Below, piece after piece: positions 20,688 to 31,011 of a stretch of DNA of 64,000 bases. This stretch comes from Carallia brachiata (Eukaryota > Streptophyta > Magnoliopsida > Malpighiales > Rhizophoraceae), in the NCBI GenBank assembly GCA_021464245.1, contig JADCRB010000067.1, forward strand, positions 1,519,908-1,583,907. Reading direction: 5' to 3'. The number at the start of each line of letters is the position of its first letter. Within the stretch, counting starts at the first letter, position 1. Made by a program: the position numbers and the translations under genes. The notes under the pieces were generated by a model that made no database searches, was not told the origin of the DNA, and saw nothing but the letters and a program-made list of their open reading frames with translations.

Positions 20688-21026
20688 CATGCTGATATGA
20701 GGTATTTATACATGCTCGTCAATTTAGTTTACGAGGTAGAAGGCGTATCAAAGACTGCATGTGGTTATCCACTTTCACTTCAATGGTGTGTGATCCCTCT
20801 TTTCTGCTCTCCACAGTGCCTATCTGCTCATTACTCTTTTTCTTTCTTTTTCTTTGTAAATTGTAATATCTGTTTATGTTTAACACTAATGAAACCTATG
20901 TGGAGTAACCGTCAAAAACTCATATTGATAGAAAGAGATTTTGCATCCATAAAGCAACTCTTTCATGTTTGCCTCACACTGTATTCTGCTAACTGTCTGA
21001 TATTGCCAGAAGAGCTAAATGTTCCC

Positions 21027-21669
21027 TGTAAAGCGTAAATTTCGAGCCTAAAAGAATTTAAACTCAAAAATACAAAAATAAATTACAAATAAAAATTGTA
21101 AAAGAAAAGAAAATTTACGTGGGGTCGATCTCCGTAGATCCTCCGATTAGTGTTCTTTTTTTGACTCCGTCAAGGGCTGCACGAGCTTGATCTTGACAAA
21201 TAATTTCCACCGCTTTTTCTTGAACTGGATATACTGAAACTGTATCTGATTTGGACGTTTTGACTACGTTTTGGAACCGTAGAGATTTGATCTGAGCCGA
21301 TCTGGCTTAATTTCACCGAGTGTCGAATGGACTTGTTCTCGGATGAGTTGCCTGGATTTTGCTGAGGGCCGTATGAGGCTTAATCCCAGCCGGATTTGTA
21401 ATATTTTGATTTTTTTTTTCTATCTCTCTCTGTTTTTTTTTTTTTTTTTTTTCGCTTCGCTGCCTCTTCTCCGCTTTCTTCTTTTTTTTTCCCTTTTCTT
21501 CTGCTGGCTTTTGCTGGCTCCCCTCTGCATTTCATTCAATTGGGGAGGCCATTTATAGGCCTCCCCCATGCCTGCCTGCCACCAACCATTTGGTTGGTGG
21601 CATTAATTAGGTTGACAGCTGCCAACTATATAATTTTTTTTTTTTTTTATAAAATTCGATTAGTTTACA
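21027..21669 (-). repeat. 3' LTR of the retrotransposon
   Basis: 643 bp; on the plus strand begins TGTAAAGCG and ends AGTTTACA. Matches 30368-31006 throughout, with small indels and substitutions. Confidence 0.93.
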
Positions 21670-21683
21670 AATGCCCCTACTTC
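21670..21683 (-). other. Polypurine tract
   Basis: On the minus strand GAAGTAGGGGCATT lies directly against the 3' LTR, the usual place for the plus-strand primer of reverse transcription. Confidence 0.65.
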
Positions 21684-22620
21684 AAGGGTCGGTAAAAAAG
21701 ATTTTTTACAGAGATAATTCGAACCGAGTCTTGAAGTCCAGTTTGAAATTTGGAAAGTCCTGATGAACATTGAATCTTGGAGTCTTCTATCTTTGACCAT
21801 GCCTGCTGTTGTTGGATCGCAATAGGAATCCGATACGATCTTGAGAAAGTTAGCAGCCTAGCTAATATAAAAATTGAAGTCTTGGCTCCAGGTGCGTTCG
21901 AGCTTCCATGGCTGGCAAAGGCTGGCAAAGGTTCTTTGAAATTCCAAAGCTCTGGTGAGGATGATCCGGTAGGCAAAGAACTTGAACCTCCCCAAGAGGA
22001 AGGCCCAGGACCTTGGAACTTCAAGACCGGCACACAGAGAGACTGACTGTAGTGATGATACCTAAGTCTGCTTCGACGTAAGGAGAGTAGTTGGAACTTC
22101 CCCGTACATCGCCGCATCCAAAGGAAAATTAGGATAATTGCAGCGTCTCATCCCTCTGTAGTAGATGCGAACTAAGGAGAGTAGTTGGAACTCTATGACA
22201 CCGATAGCGTTAGGGATCCCTCGAGAAAGACTACTCCTTCTTTTCTTAGCTTGTGCGCCTCCAACTTCTTGATCGAAGAACTTCCTGATCGAAGAACTTC
22301 CTGAGACAAGTGTAGAGACTAGCCATTTTCTTTTAAGAAAGAAGAGCTGAGGCGTGAGTATTATAACTCGGGAATGCAAGATATATATATACATGCGATA
22401 AAGTTTTTTTTTTTTTTTTTTTTTTTTAAAAAGTCAAAAAGAAAGTACACAGATTCGAGTAGGGCCATCCACGTCCCTTTCCTGCATTAGAGACAAAAGA
22501 GGCAGCGGCTGACGCGTGTCACGAAAGTCGTTACCATATGTTGCAGAAGTCGTTGCCGTGTGCTGCAGAAGTCGTTACTGTGTGGTGCCAAAGTCGTTGC
22601 ACTTTATCTTGTCGGCCGTC
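21684..22620 (-). other. Retrotransposon 3' non-coding region
   Basis: Between the WOX-like stop and the polypurine tract. Short direct repeats are visible (CTGGCAAAGG twice near 21912; GATCGAAGAACTTCCT twice near 22270; AGTCGTT with TGTGCTGCAGA-like units near 22530-22590) and a T run at 22408-22427. Open frames here resemble nothing known. Confidence 0.5.
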
Positions 22621-23357
22621 CTAGCGGGGCCCAAGGTGCAACTTCAAGTCAAGCTCGACCTCGTCTGGTGGGCCGATGATGTTGACGTCGACGTCGACGT
22701 CACTTTCCAGCTGGTTGATGCTGTCGGAATATTCTGGAAAGAGAGGCAAAGTTTCGCCAGAATAACTCCTTTCTGCTAGAAAAGTTCCTCCTTGACTTAA
22801 GTATCTAGGAGGGATGAACCCTTGGCTGACTCCGTAAGACCACCAGGACCAGCATGCATGCTCCCATGGGCTACGGCTTTGATGAACATACCGTGGAGAG
22901 ACCATTGCAGTGGAAGAACTCGGACCTGCTTCATTTGAAGGCGAAGCTGTACCAGTGAGATTTACTATGGGAACGACAGACTGTTCTTTGGAAAAAATAG
23001 TTCTCAGTGCTGGTTTCTTCCTGCTTCTTCTTCTCGATTCTGGAACCAATAAAACATTTTTTCCTTCGATTGCCCCGAGCGGGCGAAATCGTGAGAAAGT
23101 TGGTAAATTTGAGATGCACTAGGAATAATATCTCCATTGTTGTGGAAGACTTCCTCCAAAATTTCCAGTTGTGCCATGGTCGGTTGCCACCTTGTGCGGG
23201 GTGATCTTTCTTCTCCCTTGTCTTGAGGTTCAACTGGTTCCATCTTTCCTGTGGCAGAGGGGCAAAGGTCTTGGTAATGTGGTGAAGATCGGTTGAGACT
23301 GATGCTGAGTTTCAGACTCAAACCCCCGTTGCTTTTATATTTTTGGGCGCCGTTCAC
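22621..23357 (-). pseudogene. WUSCHEL-related homeobox (WOX)-like sequence inside the retrotransposon
   Basis: WOX proteins are plant transcription factors that maintain stem cells and pattern organs. A minus-strand frame from the ATG at 23357 encodes RTRWQPTMAQLEILEEVF then IPSASQI and KMFYWFQN, the WOX homeodomain with its helix-3 signature (residues about 52-107). After one frame change near 23035 the second frame continues with RRRSRKK, a Ser-rich linker, the WUS box ETLPLFPE and, just before the stop, the EAR-like repressor motif ELDLKLHLGPR. The three elements are in the order found in WUS-clade proteins, total about 245 residues. It has no introns, unlike most WOX genes, as expected for a sequence copied through RNA. 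It is in gag-pol sense between integrase and the polypurine tract. The single-nucleotide lesion could be decay or a consensus error. Helices 1-2 are divergent, so the nearest WOX cannot be named. Confidence 0.8.
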
Positions 23358-23620
23358 AGTTTATACTCATGCCGGCCAGGAGTTGGATTGGATTTTGAAC
23401 TTGGGTTCTGGACTGTGTCTGGAATTTGGAATTTTTGGCTTTTGGGTTTTGGATTGGATTGGGTCGAGTGTTTGGGCTTCTAGACTTGGATTTTTGGACT
23501 TGGGTCGAGTGTTTTGGTTTGGAATGAATTTTTGGATTTGGGTGAGTGTTTGGGTTTTGACTCTGAATTGGGCTCAAGTGTTTGGGTTTGGACTTTCGCT
23601 TGGTCTTTCAGATCGGGACT

Positions 23621-23647
23621 TCGAATTTTTTTTTTTTTTTTTTTTGA

Positions 23648-23678
<31 letters not shown>

Positions 23679-23716
23679 TTTTTTTTTTTTTTTGATTTTT
23701 TTTTTTTTTTTTTTAA
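23621..23716. repeat. T-rich low-complexity tract in the retrotransposon
   Basis: Nearly pure T broken by single GA or C bases; it lies between integrase and the WOX-like sequence. A GGATTTTGGG/TTTGGACTTGG-rich block (23380-23610) precedes it on the plus strand. Confidence 0.85.
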
Positions 23717-23871
23717 ACATATTTACACATAATACTGTTTCAGAAATTTACCATTGATTGGGCCGATTCGGACGCCTTCTTGGTCTGACAGCATGTAAGC
23801 GTTGTGAGTAGGCCTCCTGCACTAGTATGGCCCGTCCCATTTGGAAGTAAGCTTGTCACCAGGCCGATGCT

Positions 23872-26800
23872 TCATGTTGATGGGCCGTCGCACTGCAAGA
23901 ACAAGGTCTCCAACTTGAAAAGATCGAGGGCGGACCCTGCGGTTGAATGTGTTGGTGAGCCGGGCTTGGTAGCACTCAAGTTGCTGTTGTGCTTCGAGCC
24001 TCCTTTCATCGAGGCTTCTAACTCATCCAGACGTAGGCGAGCATTCTCCTCCTGTGTGAGTCCTTCCAGAACAGCCATGCGCAGGGATGGAATCTGTGTT
24101 TCCAACGGCAGTATTGCTTCGACACCGTAGACAAGTGAGTATGGCGTCGCCTGTGTTGGAGTCCGGTAAGTTGTACGATACGCCCATAATGCCTCCGGAA
24201 TTCTGTCATGCCAATCTCTTTTGGATTTAGAGACTACCTTCCGCAACAGGTTGCATAAGGTCTTGTTGAATGCTTCGGCCAAGCCATTTGCTGGGGCATT
24301 GTACATGGATGACTTGTACTGCTTGAACTTGAACTTCTCGCAGAGCTTGTCGATTAAGCTGTTGTAGAACTGCTTACCATTATCAGTGATGATGAATCGA
24401 GGGACTCCATAGCGATAGATCAGCTGAGTCCGATGAAATTGGCAACATGCTCCTTCTTTACCTCTCTAAGTGGAATGGCTTCAGCCCATTTTGAGAAGTA
24501 GTCGGTTGCTGCGAGGATGTACAGGTGACCCAGGGATGACTTTGGCAAGGGCCCCACTAAGTCGAGACCCCAAGCTTCAAAGGGCCAGGATGAGACAGTT
24601 GGATGCAGTGGCTCCGGTGGTTGATGTATGTAATTGGCATGAAATTGACAAGCTTGACAAGTTTTAGCAAACTCAATGGAATCACGTACCATGGTTGGCC
24701 AGTAGTATCCCATCCTTCTGAGTTGGAAGTGCAACTTAGGCCCCGATTGATGTCCGCCACAAACTCCTGAATGTGCTTCAGCGAGAGCTTGTTTTGCCTC
24801 TTCATTGCCTAGGCAGCGAAGTAAAACTCCATCAAAAGATCTTCGATACAGAGCATCCTTGAGATATATGAAGCGGGGAGCTCGTCGTTGAATTTCTGTC
24901 TTATGACGGCGATCTTCAGGCAGCTTCCCGTGCTGTAGGTAGTCAATGATTGGTTGGCGCCAATCCTCGTCCTCCGCGAGACGTACAGATACAGCGTTGG
25001 CTGCTGTAGTTTCTTCATCATCCTTTTGTGGCACTATCCATTTCTGACATACAGCAACAACTGTAGCCTGGATTTCTGACTTTGCAAGAGAAGTAGCCAG
25101 GTTAGCCAACGCGTCTGCCTGAGTGTTTTCTCGTCGAGGCACATGCTCCAAGGTGATGCTTTCAAATTCATCCATTAGCTGTCGAGCACGTTGATGGTAA
25201 GGCGCAAGGTCCTCTTTCTTCACGTCATACAATCCTGTAAGTTGGTTGATGACGAGCTGGGAATCTCCATGGACTTCTATAGTTGGAATCTTCATATCGA
25301 CAGCCATTTGAAGACCAATGATCAAAGCCTGGTATTCAGCAACATTATTTGAACATAACTCACCGAGAATGATAGCATATGGTAGTATTTGTCGTTGAGG
25401 GGTGACAAACACTATGCCGGCACCAGCACCATCACGCCTTGCTGCACCATCAAAGAACATCGTCCATGGTGGCAGTGTCTCAATGTAAAAGACCTCTTCA
25501 TCTGGAAGATCATCTGTGAACTCCCAATCTGACGGAACAGGGTGATCTGCAAGGAAGTCTGCTAGAGCTTGTCCTTTGACTGCTTTTTGAGGCACGTAGA
25601 CAATGTCGTAGCTTTGTAGGATTACTGCCCACTTGGCAAGTCGTCCTGACAAGATTGGTCTAGATAAGATATATTTGACAGGATCAGCTCTGGCAATGAG
25701 ACGTACCGTGTGAGCTTGCATGTAGTGCCTCAGCTTGTCAATGGCAAAGAACAGTGCTAGACATGTCTTTTCAATGGGCGAATAACTCAGCTCCGGACCG
25801 TTTAGTGTTCTGCTCAAGTAGTACAGGGCAACTTCCTTTCCCTGCTCGTTTTCCTGTGCAAGCAAGGCTCCCAAAGATCTTTCCTGCGCTGCAATGTAGA
25901 GAATCAACGACTTTCCTTGAATTGGAGCACCTAGGACCGGTGGATTGGAAAGGTACTTCTTTATGCTCTCAAAGGCTTTGCTGCAAGCTTCGTCCCACTC
26001 GAAGTTGACATCCTTCTTCATCAACCGATGGAAAGGTTGACATCTCCCAGCTAAATTGGAGATGAAACGGCGAATGTAGGCCAGCTTTCCTTGTAGACTT
26101 CGCAGCTCGTGCAGGTTTTTAGGTTCAGGCATCTTTTGAATTGCCTCAACCTTTGACTGATCAACTTCGATTCCACGATGGCGCACCACGAACCCAAGAA
26201 ACTTTCCTGATGTGACACCGAATGCGCACTTGAGAGGGTTCATTTTGAGCTGATGCCTCCGAAGTCTTTCGAACACTGTCTTGAGATCCTCGAGGTGGTC
26301 TTTGCGCTTCTTAGTCTTTACAACTAAGTCATCAACATAACATTCTACAATCTTGTGCAGCATGTCATCAAAAATTTTTTGCATAGCACGTTGATAAGTG
26401 GCGCCAGCATTTTTCAATCCAAACGGCATAACTTTGTAGCAGTATATACCTTTTGGGGTGCGGAATGCTGTCAACTCCTCGTCTTCTGGTGCCATTCTGA
26501 TTTGGTTATAGCCTGAAGAACCATCCATGAAGGACAATGCTTCGTGACCCGTTGTTGCATCGACTGTGATCTCCGTTATGGGCAATGGAAAGTCATCTTT
26601 CGGGCAGGCCGTTAAGATCTCGAAAATCAACACATACCCTCAACTGTCCATTCTTCTTTCTTACCGGGACAATGTTGGCAATCCACGTTGGGTAGGTGAC
26701 CTCTCGGATGAAGCCAGCATTGATCAGCTTGTTCACCTCCTCCTCGATTTGTGGAATGAGTTCCGGGCGGAACCGTCGTTGTGGCTGCTTGACAGAACGA

Positions 26801-26940
26801 ACACCCTTCTTTACTGCTAGACGATGCACCGCAATTTTTGGGTCAAGCCCAGGCATTTCTTTGTAACTCCATGCGAACACGTCCCTGTATTGACTTAATA
26901 CCTGAACATATTCTTGCTCTTCCTGCAGTAAGTAAAGCAC
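23872..26940 (-). pseudogene. Retrotransposon pol: RT, RNase H, second RNase H, integrase
   Basis: Three consecutive minus-strand frames. 26940-26593 holds the RT start (FRPELIPQIEEEVNKLINAG, VRKKNGQLRVCVDFRDLN). 26633-24420 (737 codons) holds the RT core with YVDD at about residues 99-102 and LKCAFGV/KFLGFVV, a gypsy RNase H, a second RNase H starting MFFDGAARRDGAGAGIVF with DSQLVINQL and NTQADALANLA, then the integrase zinc motif (HSGVCGGHQSG, CQACQFH) and the core start GLDLVGPLP. 24306-23872 continues integrase (NGLAEAFNKTLCNLLRK, EALWAYRTTYRTPTQ). Frame changes near 26600, 24420 and the 3' end interrupt the polyprotein. These enzymes copy the RNA into DNA and insert it. Presence of both RNases H points to the Tat lineage. 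Confidence 0.92.
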
Positions 26941-27666
26941 TTACAAATGTAGGTCGAGGATCTTCCGGAGAGCCAAGATTGACCTCCTTGAGTTCATCAA
27001 CAGTTGCTTGGCCACCATCTTCAAGTTCCGGGGGAGCCTCCTTCACTTCACCATCTGATGAGTCGACCAGCCTCCTCGCTAATTGTGACATGAAATGCAG
27101 AACCTCTGACTTCACCTTCTTTGTTTGACTGGATAAGCCTGTCTTGTTTGGTGGTGGTGCTGATGGGACGTGCATCAGCTGCTCGGCTTCGGCTCTTTAG
27201 CGTGATCCGCACAGGTGACTTCTCCTGATAGCCTAAGCCAGGTCGGGACTGTGATAATTGAGAAGCGGCGCCATGTGTGGATGGCAGCGTACCCATTGTG
27301 CTCGGGTTTGAGAAGTCATAGCCCGCCTTTGCCAAAAGCTTGTATGCATTAGGATCAAATCCTTCATGTGTTCTTCTTGGAAGTGAGCCGCCTTCGACTG
27401 CCCCTGTGTGGTTTGACGAAGCCTTTTAATGGTTTTGAGGACAAAACCGGCTCAATCTTTGGTATCGGCAGAGTGTAAGTCTCCTTCAGGTTGTGCAGCT
27501 CCTTTGTTTTGGGTTGGCTATGACCTTGCTCCTGTTTAAGATCAATACAATAAGAGAAAGGGGGTTGACCTTCTGAGCGTCGTGACTTCGGCACATAGCG
27601 TAGGACTGGAGTGGAGCTTGAAGATGCAACATCCTTCGGACGAGTTCAGCAGGCTGTGGCAGCTTT

Positions 27667-28517
27667 TCATTTGTTGGAGCTGGGTTGAGCATTGGCAGGT
27701 TCTTCGACAGCTTTTCCCTTTTTGTGGATGCCCCCAGTCCAAGTAGCTTTTGATGGAATGATCTCCGGATTGTCTGTGTCGGTGTAGAAGACTGCATCCG
27801 CCAAATGTGATTCAGCATCATCGAACGGCTTTAAGTCAGCATTGACCTTTTGAACGCCACCATTGTAGTACTTGAAGCACTGATGCAGGCTTGAGAGCAC
27901 AACTCCATTTCCATGAATCCACGGTCGTCCTAGCAACATCTTATATGTGGTACGTGCATCATCACGTGAAATAGAGTGCTAGAAGTGAGATTACCGATAG
28001 TTAGCTCCAAGCGAATCATCCCAATTGCTTTGTCCTCTCATCCCAATTGCTTTTGTCCTCCTTGATTAAAGCCATGAATCATCAAGCGGCTGTCTGATAA
28101 TTCATCAATGCAATGCCGAGCTCCTTTATGGTGGATTTTGGGATAATATTGACTGTCAAAGCGCGAGCCATCGTCGATCAGAATACGTCGGACCTTCTGT
28201 TCTCTCACATAGCCTGATACATACAGCGGCCGATTGTGGGGTTTGGACCCCAGCAGGAGATCCTCATCTGAAAATGAGATAGCAGAGTAACATCCGACGT
28301 GATTTTGGTCCGCCTGATACCTCGTCGAGCTGGAATTACTTGATGGCAGAGGTTCAGCTGAGGTCTGAAGAGTATTGCCGACTTGATTTTGCCACACTTC
28401 TGTTGTTTGCAAAGCTGTAAACAGCTGAGGGTTAGCGAGAAGGGTTTGGAGAGCTTCATATACCTTCTCCGTTGTCGACTTTTTGTTGTCGAGCGGCTCC
28501 TCCTTACGGTGTGTCAC
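27667..28517 (-). pseudogene. Retrotransposon protease region
   Basis: The frame 28517-28038 carries a degenerate aspartic-protease site: RILIDDGS follows the usual hydrophobic-D-G-S pattern, but the next residues differ from the common form. The frame 27939-27667 begins LLGRPWIHGNGVV with HQCFKYYNGG, a segment typical of plant gypsy polyproteins just after the protease. At least one frame break separates them. Up to the RT start at 26940 the sequence is linker with no clear domain. Confidence 0.75.
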
Positions 28518-28534
28518 CTCTTCTGATGGTTTTG

Positions 28535-30208
28535 AAGTGATGGTGGTCTGGTTTGCAGGTTATGCCTTCCTGGTCCAGAATGATTTTATTCTGGCTTTTG
28601 AGCTTCATGATTAGCTCCTTCAGGACGAACACTTCTCAGTTGGATGACTTACTATCCGGTGATATTTGCAGAATCTCGGATCGCTGACTCGATCCTTTTC
28701 ATTGGGCCGCTTGCACTCTGGGAGTTCGATCAGCTTCGCCTCCAAGAGTTGTTCAAGAATGTCGGGACGTCTGAGTCGGGGAATGGATACTGCTTCTGCT
28801 CCAACTCTCGCAATGTCACCTTCCGCCTTTCCTGTTGTTTTGGCTGAGTTATTTGGGTCGGAGGATTTACCTTAGCTTTGGCGCCCACTTTTACTGGTGC
28901 GGCTTCAACAGTCATCACTTCTTTCCTTTTCCGGAGCTGTTGGGTTTCTTAATCTCCCTTCTGCCCCCTTGCTGGTCCAACTGGATGGGAACCGTGCCTC
29001 CGGAAGTCTGGATGCTTATCTCCATATCATGTGCGCGGGTCGCCAGTTCTTCGAAAGTTCGGGGTTTGACACCCTGCAGGATGTATAACAGCTCCCAATG
29101 CATTCCCTGGATGCACATCTCTACGGCAGAAGTCTCCGTCAGGCGATCTTTGCAGTCCAAGCTGAGGGCACGCCATCTGTTGATGTATTCGACAACGGGC
29201 TCTCCTTTCCTTTGTTTGGTGCTGGTAAGCTCCATCATACTTACCGTCCTTCGAGTGCTGAAAAATCTGTTGAGGAACTCTCGTTGTAGCTGTTCCCAAC
29301 TGTCGATCGATTCTGGTTCAAGATTTATGAACCAGGTGAAAGCGGTCTCCCTGAGTGAACGAACAAACTGCTTCACCAAGAGATCTCCATAAGTCCCTGC
29401 GTTGTTGCAGGTTTCAACGAAGTGGGCGATGTGCTGTTTGGGATCGCCTCGTCCGTCGAATTGTTGAAATTTGGGCGGCTGGTAGCCCAAGGGCATGTTG
29501 AGACTTTCGATCCGTCTGGTGTACGGTTTGACGTACATCTGTGATCCTTGGAAGGATGTAGCTTGTTGCAGTCGGATCGTATTGGCTATCATTTCCTGCA
29601 ATTGTTGAACAGATAGCGAAGCTACAGAATTTGAGGGTGGCAGCTGTGTAGAACTACCTGGTCGCTTTTCTGCAGGGAAGACGTCGGCTGGTGTGGCTTC
29701 TGGAGTGAAACCGGGTGGATATGGTTGCTCCTCGCGGATTCGGGATCAACTTGGATCGGGGCTTTTCCTTTGAGAGCGGCGATCTGTTGATCTTTTTCCT
29801 CCACGACTCTGATCAGCTGCAAAATTTTGTTCTCCAATTCTGAAATTCTTTCCTCTGTGCTGGTTGTGTTGGTCATCATGACGGCAACAGATGAGGCTCC
29901 GGAAAGACTGGGGGAGAAAACTCTTCTGATTCTTCTGTGTGGTCGAATGATTTTGTTGAGCAGGCTTCGTCGTGTTGCCCCCCTTCGATCGGGGTGGGTG
30001 ATCGACTCCTCCATGCGGCAAGAGAGTCAGGGGAGAGATCCTGTTGTGCGAGCTGTGGACTCTCCATTTCGACATTTTTGGGTTTGGACGGCAAGAAATT
30101 GTGTCCGTCCCCGGGTTTCTGGACCTGCGTACCCAGGTAGGGTAGTTGATGCAGGCAATGGAGCCGTTGCCTTCTTTTGGTAGCAGTTGTACTCCTTTTC
30201 GGTGCCAT
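28535..30208 (-). pseudogene. Retrotransposon gag
   Basis: The likely start is MAPKRSTTATKRRQ at 30208, followed after a frame change by a coiled coil (ERISELENKILQLIRVVEEK). The gag domain is at 29601-28915: PKFQQFDGRGDPKQHIAHFV, FVRSLRETAFTWFINLEP, WEQLQREFLNRFF and KQRKGEPVVEYINRWR, the plant retrotransposon gag family. Downstream, 28918-28730 continues with a basic linker and RELEQKQYPFPDSDVP. Frameshifts break it at about 29610 and elsewhere. Gag packages the element RNA in virus-like particles. Confidence 0.87.
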
Positions 30209-30343
30209 TTGATGTGCTGAACACCTGTAAAATTTTTTTTTTTTTTTTACTTTTTTTTTTACTTTTTACTTTTTTACTTTTTTTTTACTTTTTTTTTTAC
30301 TTTTTTTTTTTTTTTTACGGAACAAGAGATGGGAGGTGAAGAT

Positions 30344-30361
30344 GTCCCACTGGGCGTGCCA
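30344..30361 (-). other. Primer-binding-site-like sequence
   Basis: On the minus strand TGGCACGCCCAGTGGGAC follows the 5' LTR after a spacer of about 6 nt, begins TGG like most tRNA 3'-end complements, and is where minus-strand DNA synthesis would start. The cognate tRNA was not identified. Confidence 0.6.
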
Positions 30362-30367
30362 AAAATT

Positions 30368-31006
30368 TGTAAAACGTAAATTTCGAGCCTAAAAGAATTT
30401 AAACTCAAAAATACAAAAATAAATTACAAATAAAAATTGTAAAAAAAAGAAAATTTACGTGGGGTCGATCTCCGTAGATCCTCCGATTAGTGTTCATTTT
30501 TTGACTCCGTCAAGGGCTGCACGAGCTTGATCTTGACAGAAATAATTTCCACCGCTTTTTCTTGAATTGGATATACTGAAACTGTATCTGATTTGGACGT
30601 TTTGACTACGTTTAGGAACCGTAGAGATTTACTGAGCCATCTGGCTTAATTTCACCGAGTGTCGAATGGACTTGTTCTCGGATGAGTTGCCTGGATTTTG
30701 CTGAGGGCCGTATGAGATTTAATCCCAGCCGGATTTATAATATTTTGATTTTTTTTTTCTATCTCTCTCTTTTTTTTTTTTTTTTTCGCTTCGCTGCCTC
30801 TTCTCTGCTTTCTTCTTTTTTTTTTCCTTTTTTTCTGCTGGCTTTTGCTGGCTCCCCTCTGCATTTCATTCAATTGGGGAGGCCATTTATAGGCCTCCCC
30901 CATGCCTGCCTGCCACCAACCATTTGGTTGGTGGCATTAATTAGGTTGGCGGTTGCCAACCATATAATTTTTTTTTTTTTTTTTTATAAAATTCGATTAG
31001 TTTACA
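30368..31006 (-). repeat. 5' LTR of the retrotransposon
   Basis: 639 bp, TGTAAAACG to AGTTTACA on the plus strand, matching 21027-21669. A T-rich tract with TTTTAC units (30231-30317) lies just inside the element. Confidence 0.93.
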
Positions 31007-31011
31007 TTCCC

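What the first reader, a model, noticed from the sequence alone, without database searches (positions are those of the whole stretch)
22621..23357. A WUSCHEL-related homeobox gene captured inside an LTR retrotransposon
Seen: between integrase and the polypurine tract, in gag-pol sense, two adjoining frames encode a WOX homeodomain (RTRWQPT... to KMFYWFQN), a WUS box (ETLPLFPE) and a terminal EAR-like motif (LDLKLHL), without introns. Known: WUS-clade WOX proteins have these three parts in this order, and their genes usually have introns inside or just after the homeodomain. Inference: an mRNA-derived WOX copy was transduced by a Tat-like element and would be carried and expressed with it. A mobile stem-cell regulator, or a dominant-negative or siRNA source against WOX genes, would be a notable system. 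The single frame change near 23035 leaves open whether this copy is dead while siblings are intact.
Basis: partly seen in the sequence, partly recalled or inferred. Interest (0 to 1): 0.88.

Follow-up and report, generated by a model that had tools for sequence, protein, structure and literature searches.

The report
Jumping gene carrying a WUSCHEL-type regulator
In this plant genome a jumping genetic element present in hundreds of copies carries its own version of WUSCHEL, the plant stem-cell control gene; it was likely captured long ago from a messenger RNA, likely stays useful to the element, and would let the element influence the cells it lives in.

Summary
Confirmed, and larger than one window shows. 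The minus-strand element at 21027-31006 is a complete Ty3/Gypsy insertion with two RNase H domains (Tat-type), two LTRs and a GGGAA target duplication. Between integrase and 3' LTR it carries an intronless WUSCHEL-type gene: homeodomain, WUS box, terminal LxLxLxL. The window's copy is broken. A 20-base homeobox pattern has 868 sites in the 337.5-Mb genome (reversed control 5), and 40 of 40 fetched integrase-selected copies carry the sequence. 16 of 70 aligned copies are uninterrupted. dN/dS between copies is 0.49 (homeodomain 0.40), and shared changes are enriched for silent ones (p=0.004) only in the true frame. DNA-contact residues known from WUSCHEL crystal structures are nearly invariant; a one-residue insertion seen otherwise only in WUSCHEL points to WUS as donor, though trees do not resolve it. 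I infer an element-encoded transcription factor; expression, targets and benefit are untested. WUS sites are not enriched in the LTRs, and no shared 18-mer with sampled host WOX loci supports an siRNA role. Prior art: a 2023 meeting report briefly mentions LTR-flanked WOX amplification in two Vigna species; this genome gave no good leghemoglobin match, so is probably not Vigna.

The parts
30368..31006 (-). 5' LTR; target duplication GGGAA at 31007-31011
   Evidence: 95.7% identical to 21027-21669; flanks
30343..30361 (-). predicted primer binding site, TGGCACGCCCAGTGGGACA, six bases inside the 5' LTR
   Evidence: sequence printed; primer tRNA not tested
28918..29601 (-). gag frame
   Evidence: PF03732 E=3.1e-15
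24420..26633 (-). pol frame: reverse transcriptase, RNase H, second RNase H (RVT_3), integrase zinc finger
   Evidence: Pfam order RVT_1, RT_RNaseH, RVT_3, Integrase_H2C2
23875..24306 (-). end of integrase; frame change at about 24010 in this copy
   Evidence: two pieces in two frames, kept apart
23331..23397 (-). conserved TATA-like block 88-154 bases before the WOX ATG; predicted internal promoter
   Evidence: matches the least divergent 60-base stretch between integrase and LTR: 0.85% mismatch, median 6.6% over 408 overlapping windows, 65 copies; position
22621..23243 (-). WUSCHEL-type gene from its ATG to its stop, interrupted in this copy by three frame-changing indels
23010..23195 (-). 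homeodomain (partly out of frame in this copy)
   Evidence: PF00046; WUSCHEL 6ry3
22736..22755 (-). WUS box, ETLPLFP
   Evidence: position; TLxLFP in 45 of 66 copies without a gap there
22633..22653 (-). terminal EAR-like motif LDLKLHL
   Evidence: position; LxLxLxL in 63 of 66 copies
21670..21683 (-). polypurine tract before the 3' LTR
   Evidence: sequence printed
21027..21669 (-). 3' LTR; target duplication GGGAA at 21022-21026

Best explanation
A Ty3/Gypsy LTR retrotransposon family with hundreds of copies in this plant genome carries, between integrase and 3' LTR, an intronless WUSCHEL-type homeobox gene that was likely captured once from a WUSCHEL mRNA and likely serves the element as its own DNA-binding transcription factor. 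Shown: presence in each of the 40 fetched integrase-selected copies, the three-part WUS layout, uninterrupted frames in a minority of copies, nearly invariant DNA-contact residues, and dN/dS below 1 in the true frame. Inferred: the gene would be transcribed from the LTR or from the conserved TATA-like block before its ATG; the protein would enter the nucleus, bind TGAA- or TAAT-type sites as WUSCHEL does, and recruit a co-repressor through its WUS box and LxLxLxL tail. Most likely, but untested, this would push or hold the cell in a stem-cell-like or permissive state in the shoot lineage that gives rise to germ cells, so that new insertions are inherited.
For: 868 pattern sites against 5 in the reversed control; same place in 40 of 40 copies, also in lineages whose integrase is only 81-83% identical (L079-L081 lie next to such hits). 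16 of 70 copies uninterrupted. dN/dS 0.49 (CI 0.38-0.64), homeodomain 0.40 (0.26-0.62); shifted frames 0.75 and 0.99 for the whole frame. Changes shared by 4 or more copies 39 silent:59 replacing, singletons 47:156, p=0.004; shifted frames p=0.42 and 0.22. Contact residues R38, W39, N90 kept in 70 of 70, Q89 66 of 70, R94 63 of 67 (WUS numbering from PMC7203112, passages). Spacing RW-WFQN 49 in WUS and 15 of 16 element copies, 48 in 12 other host WOX and STENOFOLIA. Conserved block before the ATG; ATG kept in 69 of 70.
Against: No expression data. No enrichment of WUS-type sites in 28 LTRs. The C-terminal part shows no protein-level constraint beyond shifted frames (0.64 against 0.62 and 0.60; shared against singleton p=0.15 the other way). 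Most copies are broken: 54 of 70; of 20 homeodomain-selected copies only 2 are uninterrupted. The samples are not random: some were chosen by homeodomain score, which may lower homeodomain dN/dS, and the integrase-selected ones share an integrase frame change. The tree does not resolve the donor: element with WUS p=0.34, with STENOFOLIA 0.41, with the other two clades 0.26 and 0.27, none rejected, and a long-branch warning stands. A transcription factor acts in trans, so it is not obvious how selection keeps it in single copies.
Confidence: 0.6

Rival explanations
1. Passenger: the WOX sequence was transduced once and rides along without function; the copy number reflects the element's burst alone.
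For: 54 of 70 copies are interrupted; the C-terminal part shows no excess constraint; no WUS sites enriched in the LTRs.
Against: dN/dS below 1 in the true frame only, with silent changes enriched among shared changes; contact residues nearly invariant; retained in lineages with integrase down to 81% identity.
Confidence: 0.2
2. Competitor of host WUSCHEL: the element protein keeps DNA binding but differs in partner contacts, so it would occupy WUS sites and blunt host WUS or WOX function (dominant-negative), for instance to escape WUS-linked defence in the meristem.
For: Base contacts kept while the residues between them differ from all host WUS-clade genes (RRSRKK against HKARER); variable WUS box (45 of 66 keep TLxLFP).
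Against: LxLxLxL is kept in 63 of 66 copies, so a repressor of WUS type is the simpler reading; nothing functional tested.
Confidence: 0.13
3. Small-RNA source against host WOX genes: transcripts of the element would yield siRNAs that silence WOX genes.
For: High copy number.
Against: No exact shared stretch of 18 or more bases with 14 host WOX loci, five of them held only around the homeodomain; longest shared stretch 17. In one element copy scanned at every third position the best 21-base match has 3 mismatches. Constraint is on the protein frame.
Confidence: 0.03
4. A normal host WOX gene or pseudogene put here by mis-assembly.
For: None found.
Against: Hundreds of copies at the same place in the element; the insertion is bounded by a precise GGGAA duplication; element homeodomains form one group apart from 14 host WOX.
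Confidence: 0.01

Closest known systems
LTR-flanked WOX amplification in Vigna marina and V. riukiuensis (PMC10714607, meeting report, section read; the preprint behind it, 10.1101/2022.03.28.486085, is not held)
   Same: WOX genes in very many copies (over 1000 in V. riukiuensis), mostly between identical LTRs with target duplications
   Different: Only three sentences there: no sequence, clade, integrity, selection or element type given. The genome here is probably not Vigna. Kinship of the two elements is untested.
Gypsy elements with acquired host domains, e.g. the Phalaenopsis AlkB element; a screen of 121 angiosperm genomes (PMC9289625, outline, one results section and passages read)
   Same: Ty3/Gypsy element with an added host-derived coding region kept through the family's diversification
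   Different: That screen's text names 15 extra domains found often enough, among them B3 and a LONELY GUY-type YgdH domain; the words WUSCHEL, WOX and homeo- do not occur in its main text
Retand/Tat elements with extra frames between pol and 3' LTR (PMC11963269, passages; review PMC7264820, passages)
   Same: Tat-type pol and extra coding capacity between pol and 3' LTR
   Different: Their named extra domains (mainly TRP28) are antisense; the gene here is in gag-pol sense and is a homeobox gene
WUSCHEL (WUS-clade WOX transcription factors)
   Same: Homeodomain with the same base contacts and the WUS-specific spacing, WUS box, terminal leucine motif, in that order
   Different: About 51% identity in the homeodomain to the host WUS genes and no convincing similarity in the linker; no introns, mobile, hundreds of copies

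Membership tests
WUS-clade WOX protein | WOX-type homeodomain | tested here: met
   PF00046 and best structure match WUSCHEL, E=2.7e-18 for an uninterrupted sibling
WUS-clade WOX protein | WUS box TLxLFP | tested here: met
   45 of 66 copies, the window's among them
WUS-clade WOX protein | EAR-like terminal LxLxL | tested here: met
   63 of 66 copies
WUS-clade WOX protein | groups with WUS-clade genes in a tree | tested here: inconclusive
   on the WUS-clade side at 93/89, but other placements not rejected and long branches present
WUSCHEL itself as donor | one-residue longer homeodomain than other WOX | tested here: met
   distance 49 in host WUS (2 genes), Arabidopsis WUS and 15 of 16 element copies; 48 in 12 other host WOX and STENOFOLIA
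Ty3/Gypsy, Tat lineage | pol with a second RNase H between RNase H and integrase (definition recalled) | tested here: met
   RT_RNaseH 241-342, RVT_3 394-513, Integrase_H2C2 611-664 of the 737-aa frame
LTR retrotransposon | paired LTRs, target duplication, gag and pol | tested here: met
Retand element | antisense TRP28 frame between pol and 3' LTR | not tested
   no search for TRP28 was made
Vigna WOX-LTR element | sequence kinship to the Vigna elements | not testable with these tools
   no Vigna genome held; viral contigs gave no relative

The most novel reading that the evidence does not exclude
A selfish retrotransposon that encodes its own stem-cell master regulator: by expressing a WUSCHEL-type factor it makes or keeps the cells it occupies part of the shoot stem-cell lineage and so buys passage into the germ line, a plant counterpart of a transforming retrovirus that keeps its oncogene because it pays. 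The Vigna cases would be a second instance of the same strategy.
Probability: 0.22. Interest if true: 0.94.

Novelty: new variant of a known kind. Interest (0 to 1): 0.74.

Why it matters
Retrotransposons rarely keep a captured host gene in working order. Plants set aside germ cells late, from the shoot stem cells that WUSCHEL governs. An element that has kept a WUSCHEL gene through its own radiation makes it directly testable whether plant transposons manipulate development to reach the germ line. It also shows how one genome can hold hundreds of homeobox sequences that would mislead gene-family surveys.

Tried and rejected
LTR self-regulation: WUS-type motifs were counted in the 28 of 40 integrase-selected copies whose LTR start was found, without enrichment over shuffles; the single TGAATGAA in the window's LTR was in 1 of 28. 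siRNA against host WOX: no shared 18-mer with 14 sampled loci. Relatives elsewhere: the two window frames alone found none at E<=0.001; an uninterrupted sibling frame found 46 proteins among 131 candidates, at 28-52% identity over the aligned part, the names shown and the four read being ordinary WOX proteins; viral contigs gave none; Rfam none in the window. Host WOX DNA as source of the conserved block: only 11-15-base matches. I first took the integrase-selected copies as an unbiased sample; that was wrong, since the query piece carries a frame change that all 40 fetched copies share, so dN/dS is also given for 23 copies chosen without regard to integrase. The count of integrase sites in the genome, for the fraction of elements with WOX, did not complete. 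Related Tat elements without WOX were not found or looked for beyond the capped lists. Structure prediction was not used: the window copy is out of frame in the homeodomain, and loci of the genome search are not on that tool's list. Three further papers opened by passages said nothing on LTR-borne WOX (PMC7004133, PMC13051636, PMC10149957).

Full report
The element. On the minus strand, 31006-21027 is a whole LTR retrotransposon: LTRs 95.7% identical, K2P 0.024 over 634 sites, a 5-base duplication GGGAA on both sides, gag (PF03732), and pol with reverse transcriptase, RNase H, a second RNase H and the integrase zinc finger in that order. The second RNase H is the mark of the Tat lineage (recalled). 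With 1.3e-8 changes per site and year (recalled) the LTRs would date this insertion to about 0.9 million years. A second copy, with an uninterrupted WOX frame, has LTR K2P 0.0185 over 822 sites. The window copy is defective: integrase changes frame at about 24010, pol is open in different frames on either side of about 26600, and WOX has three frame-changing indels.

The captured gene. Between integrase and 3' LTR lies a gene with homeodomain, WUS box and terminal LxLxLxL, in gag-pol sense. The window frame hits Pfam Homeodomain and the WUSCHEL structure; an uninterrupted sibling scores far better (E=2.2e-12 and 2.7e-18). It is one continuous frame there, whereas in both host WUS loci the WUS box lies more than 1 kb beyond the homeodomain, past stop codons of the homeodomain exon, so the host genes have introns that the element copy lacks.

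How many. The window lies in a 337.5-Mb genome of 164 contigs. DNA search scored 39 other copies at 93-96%. A WUSCHEL homeodomain query gave 150 scored matches, the first nine of which are ordinary host WOX genes (L009-L017). A 20-base homeobox pattern with up to two mismatches has 868 sites, the reversed pattern 5; these include broken copies. All 40 have WOX-like DNA after integrase; in L049 only its first part is left. This sample is biased: the integrase query has the window's frame change and all 40 share it. Among 28 other loci chosen by the WOX region or the homeodomain, 19 have the two integrase pieces in one frame, 5 have a frame change and 4 could not be judged, so the family as a whole is not integrase-dead.

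Is it kept working? 70 different copies with a complete WOX region were aligned (two duplicates, L001 and L032, and the truncated L049 dropped). 16 of 70 have no stop or frame change: 4 of 7, 2 of 20 homeodomain-selected, 7 of 39 integrase-selected, 3 of 4 hand-picked. Pooled pairwise dN/dS is 0.49 (95% CI 0.38-0.64 by codon bootstrap), homeodomain 0.40 (0.26-0.62), the rest after it 0.58 (0.41-0.83); the same columns in shifted frames give 0.75 and 0.99 for the whole frame and 0.67 and 1.49 for the homeodomain, with wide intervals. The 22 codons before the ATG give 1.57. In the 39 integrase-selected copies the values are 0.52 for the frame and 0.41 for the homeodomain; in 23 copies chosen by the WOX region or homeodomain they are 0.46 and 0.33, with 0.11 for integrase. 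Changes seen in four or more copies, which mostly passed through active elements, are 39 silent to 59 replacing; singletons, mostly decay after insertion, are 47 to 156 (p=0.004). Neither shifted frame shows this (p=0.42 and 0.22). The homeodomain (p=0.03) and linker (p=0.0004) carry the signal. The C-terminal part does not (p=0.15 in the other direction), and its dN/dS equals that of shifted frames, so constraint there rests on motif retention alone: LxLxLxL in 63 of 66 copies, TLxLFP in 45 of 66.

What the protein would do. The WUSCHEL structure paper (PMC7203112, passages read) names R38, Q89, N90 and R94 as base contacts, W39 as anchor, and I66 and F85 in the dimer interface. Mapped by position onto the element, R38, W39, N90 and I66 are kept in 70 of 70 copies, Q89 in 66 of 70, R94 in 63 of 67, F85 in 60 of 69. 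The residues between contacts differ from the host WUS-clade proteins (RRSRKK for HKARER or close variants), so affinity or partner choice may have shifted.

Where it came from. All 16 uninterrupted element homeodomains form one group (99/94) on the WUS-clade side of the tree (93/89, below that tool's star) on a very long stem, with a long-branch warning. Holding the element with WUS (p=0.34), STENOFOLIA (0.41) or either of the two other clades (0.26, 0.27) is not rejected, so the tree does not name the donor. A discrete character does better: the distance RW to WFQN is 49 in both host WUS genes, Arabidopsis WUS and 15 of 16 element copies (the other has 46), and 48 in 12 other host WOX and STENOFOLIA. 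The four best database relatives, at 43-50% identity over 33-44% of the query, are a named WUSCHEL and three that read as WUSCHEL. I conclude one old capture, most likely from WUSCHEL; whether in this host lineage is open.

Expression. The least divergent stretch between integrase and LTR is a 60-base block about 90-150 bases before the ATG: 0.85% mismatch against a median of 6.6% (408 overlapping windows, 65 copies). It holds TATAAA and, in the window, ATATAAAAG. A core promoter is the plain reading; an RNA signal is possible. The ATG is kept in 69 of 70 copies.

What it is for. WUSCHEL maintains shoot stem cells (PMC7203112 abstract); descendants of these cells give rise to germ cells, and transposable elements are transiently more expressed in stem cells before flowering (PMC7560203, abstract and passages). 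An element that carries WUS could gain by steering cell fate or defence there. I found no sign of the simplest alternative, control of its own LTR through known WUS sites. This last step is inference.

Prior art. Ten paper searches were answered; eight bear on the question (not 46 and 70). They turned up one account: three sentences in a 2023 meeting report (PMC10714607, section read) that Vigna marina and V. riukiuensis have WOX genes amplified between LTRs. The preprint behind it is not held. In the parts and word counts that I saw of PMC7264820, PMC9289625 and PMC11963269, WOX, WUSCHEL and words beginning 'homeo' do not occur. The kind, a Gypsy element with a captured host gene, is known; a WUSCHEL-derived gene with protein-level constraint as a regular part of a Tat-type family is, as far as these searches show, a new variant.

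Noticed in passing
23875-24306, and L039-L078: All 40 integrase-selected copies share the window's frame change at the end of integrase, against 5 of 24 judged copies chosen otherwise: selected by the query, but a sizeable sublineage with a broken integrase tail may have been amplified in trans, or the site is a mutation hotspot.
   Followed up: partly
L002-L038, integrase against WOX region: In the same 23 copies integrase is much less divergent at silent sites than WOX (0.037 against 0.095), and divergence rises sharply after integrase, as if one pol had been recombined onto older, diverse 3' ends.
   Followed up: partly
L066:2271-2350: A second stretch of low divergence (down to 1.4% mismatch) between WOX and the 3' LTR, function unknown.
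   Followed up: no
3' LTRs of L039-L078: The first part of the LTR differs in length and sequence between copies: its distance to the conserved part ranges from about 190 to 930 bases in 28 copies.
   Followed up: no
L070, L075 and others: A minor WOX subfamily (7-8 of about 66 copies) has NVYFWFQN and RRHRET at the recognition helix; L070 and L075 still have open frames.
   Followed up: no
207-1241: Host gene with a Frigida-like domain (PF07899, E=2.3e-54).
   Followed up: no
PMC9289625, section read: Citrus Gypsy elements are reported to carry a LONELY GUY-type YgdH domain (cytokinin-related): with WUS here, a second shoot-meristem pathway gene taken up by Gypsy elements.
   Followed up: partly
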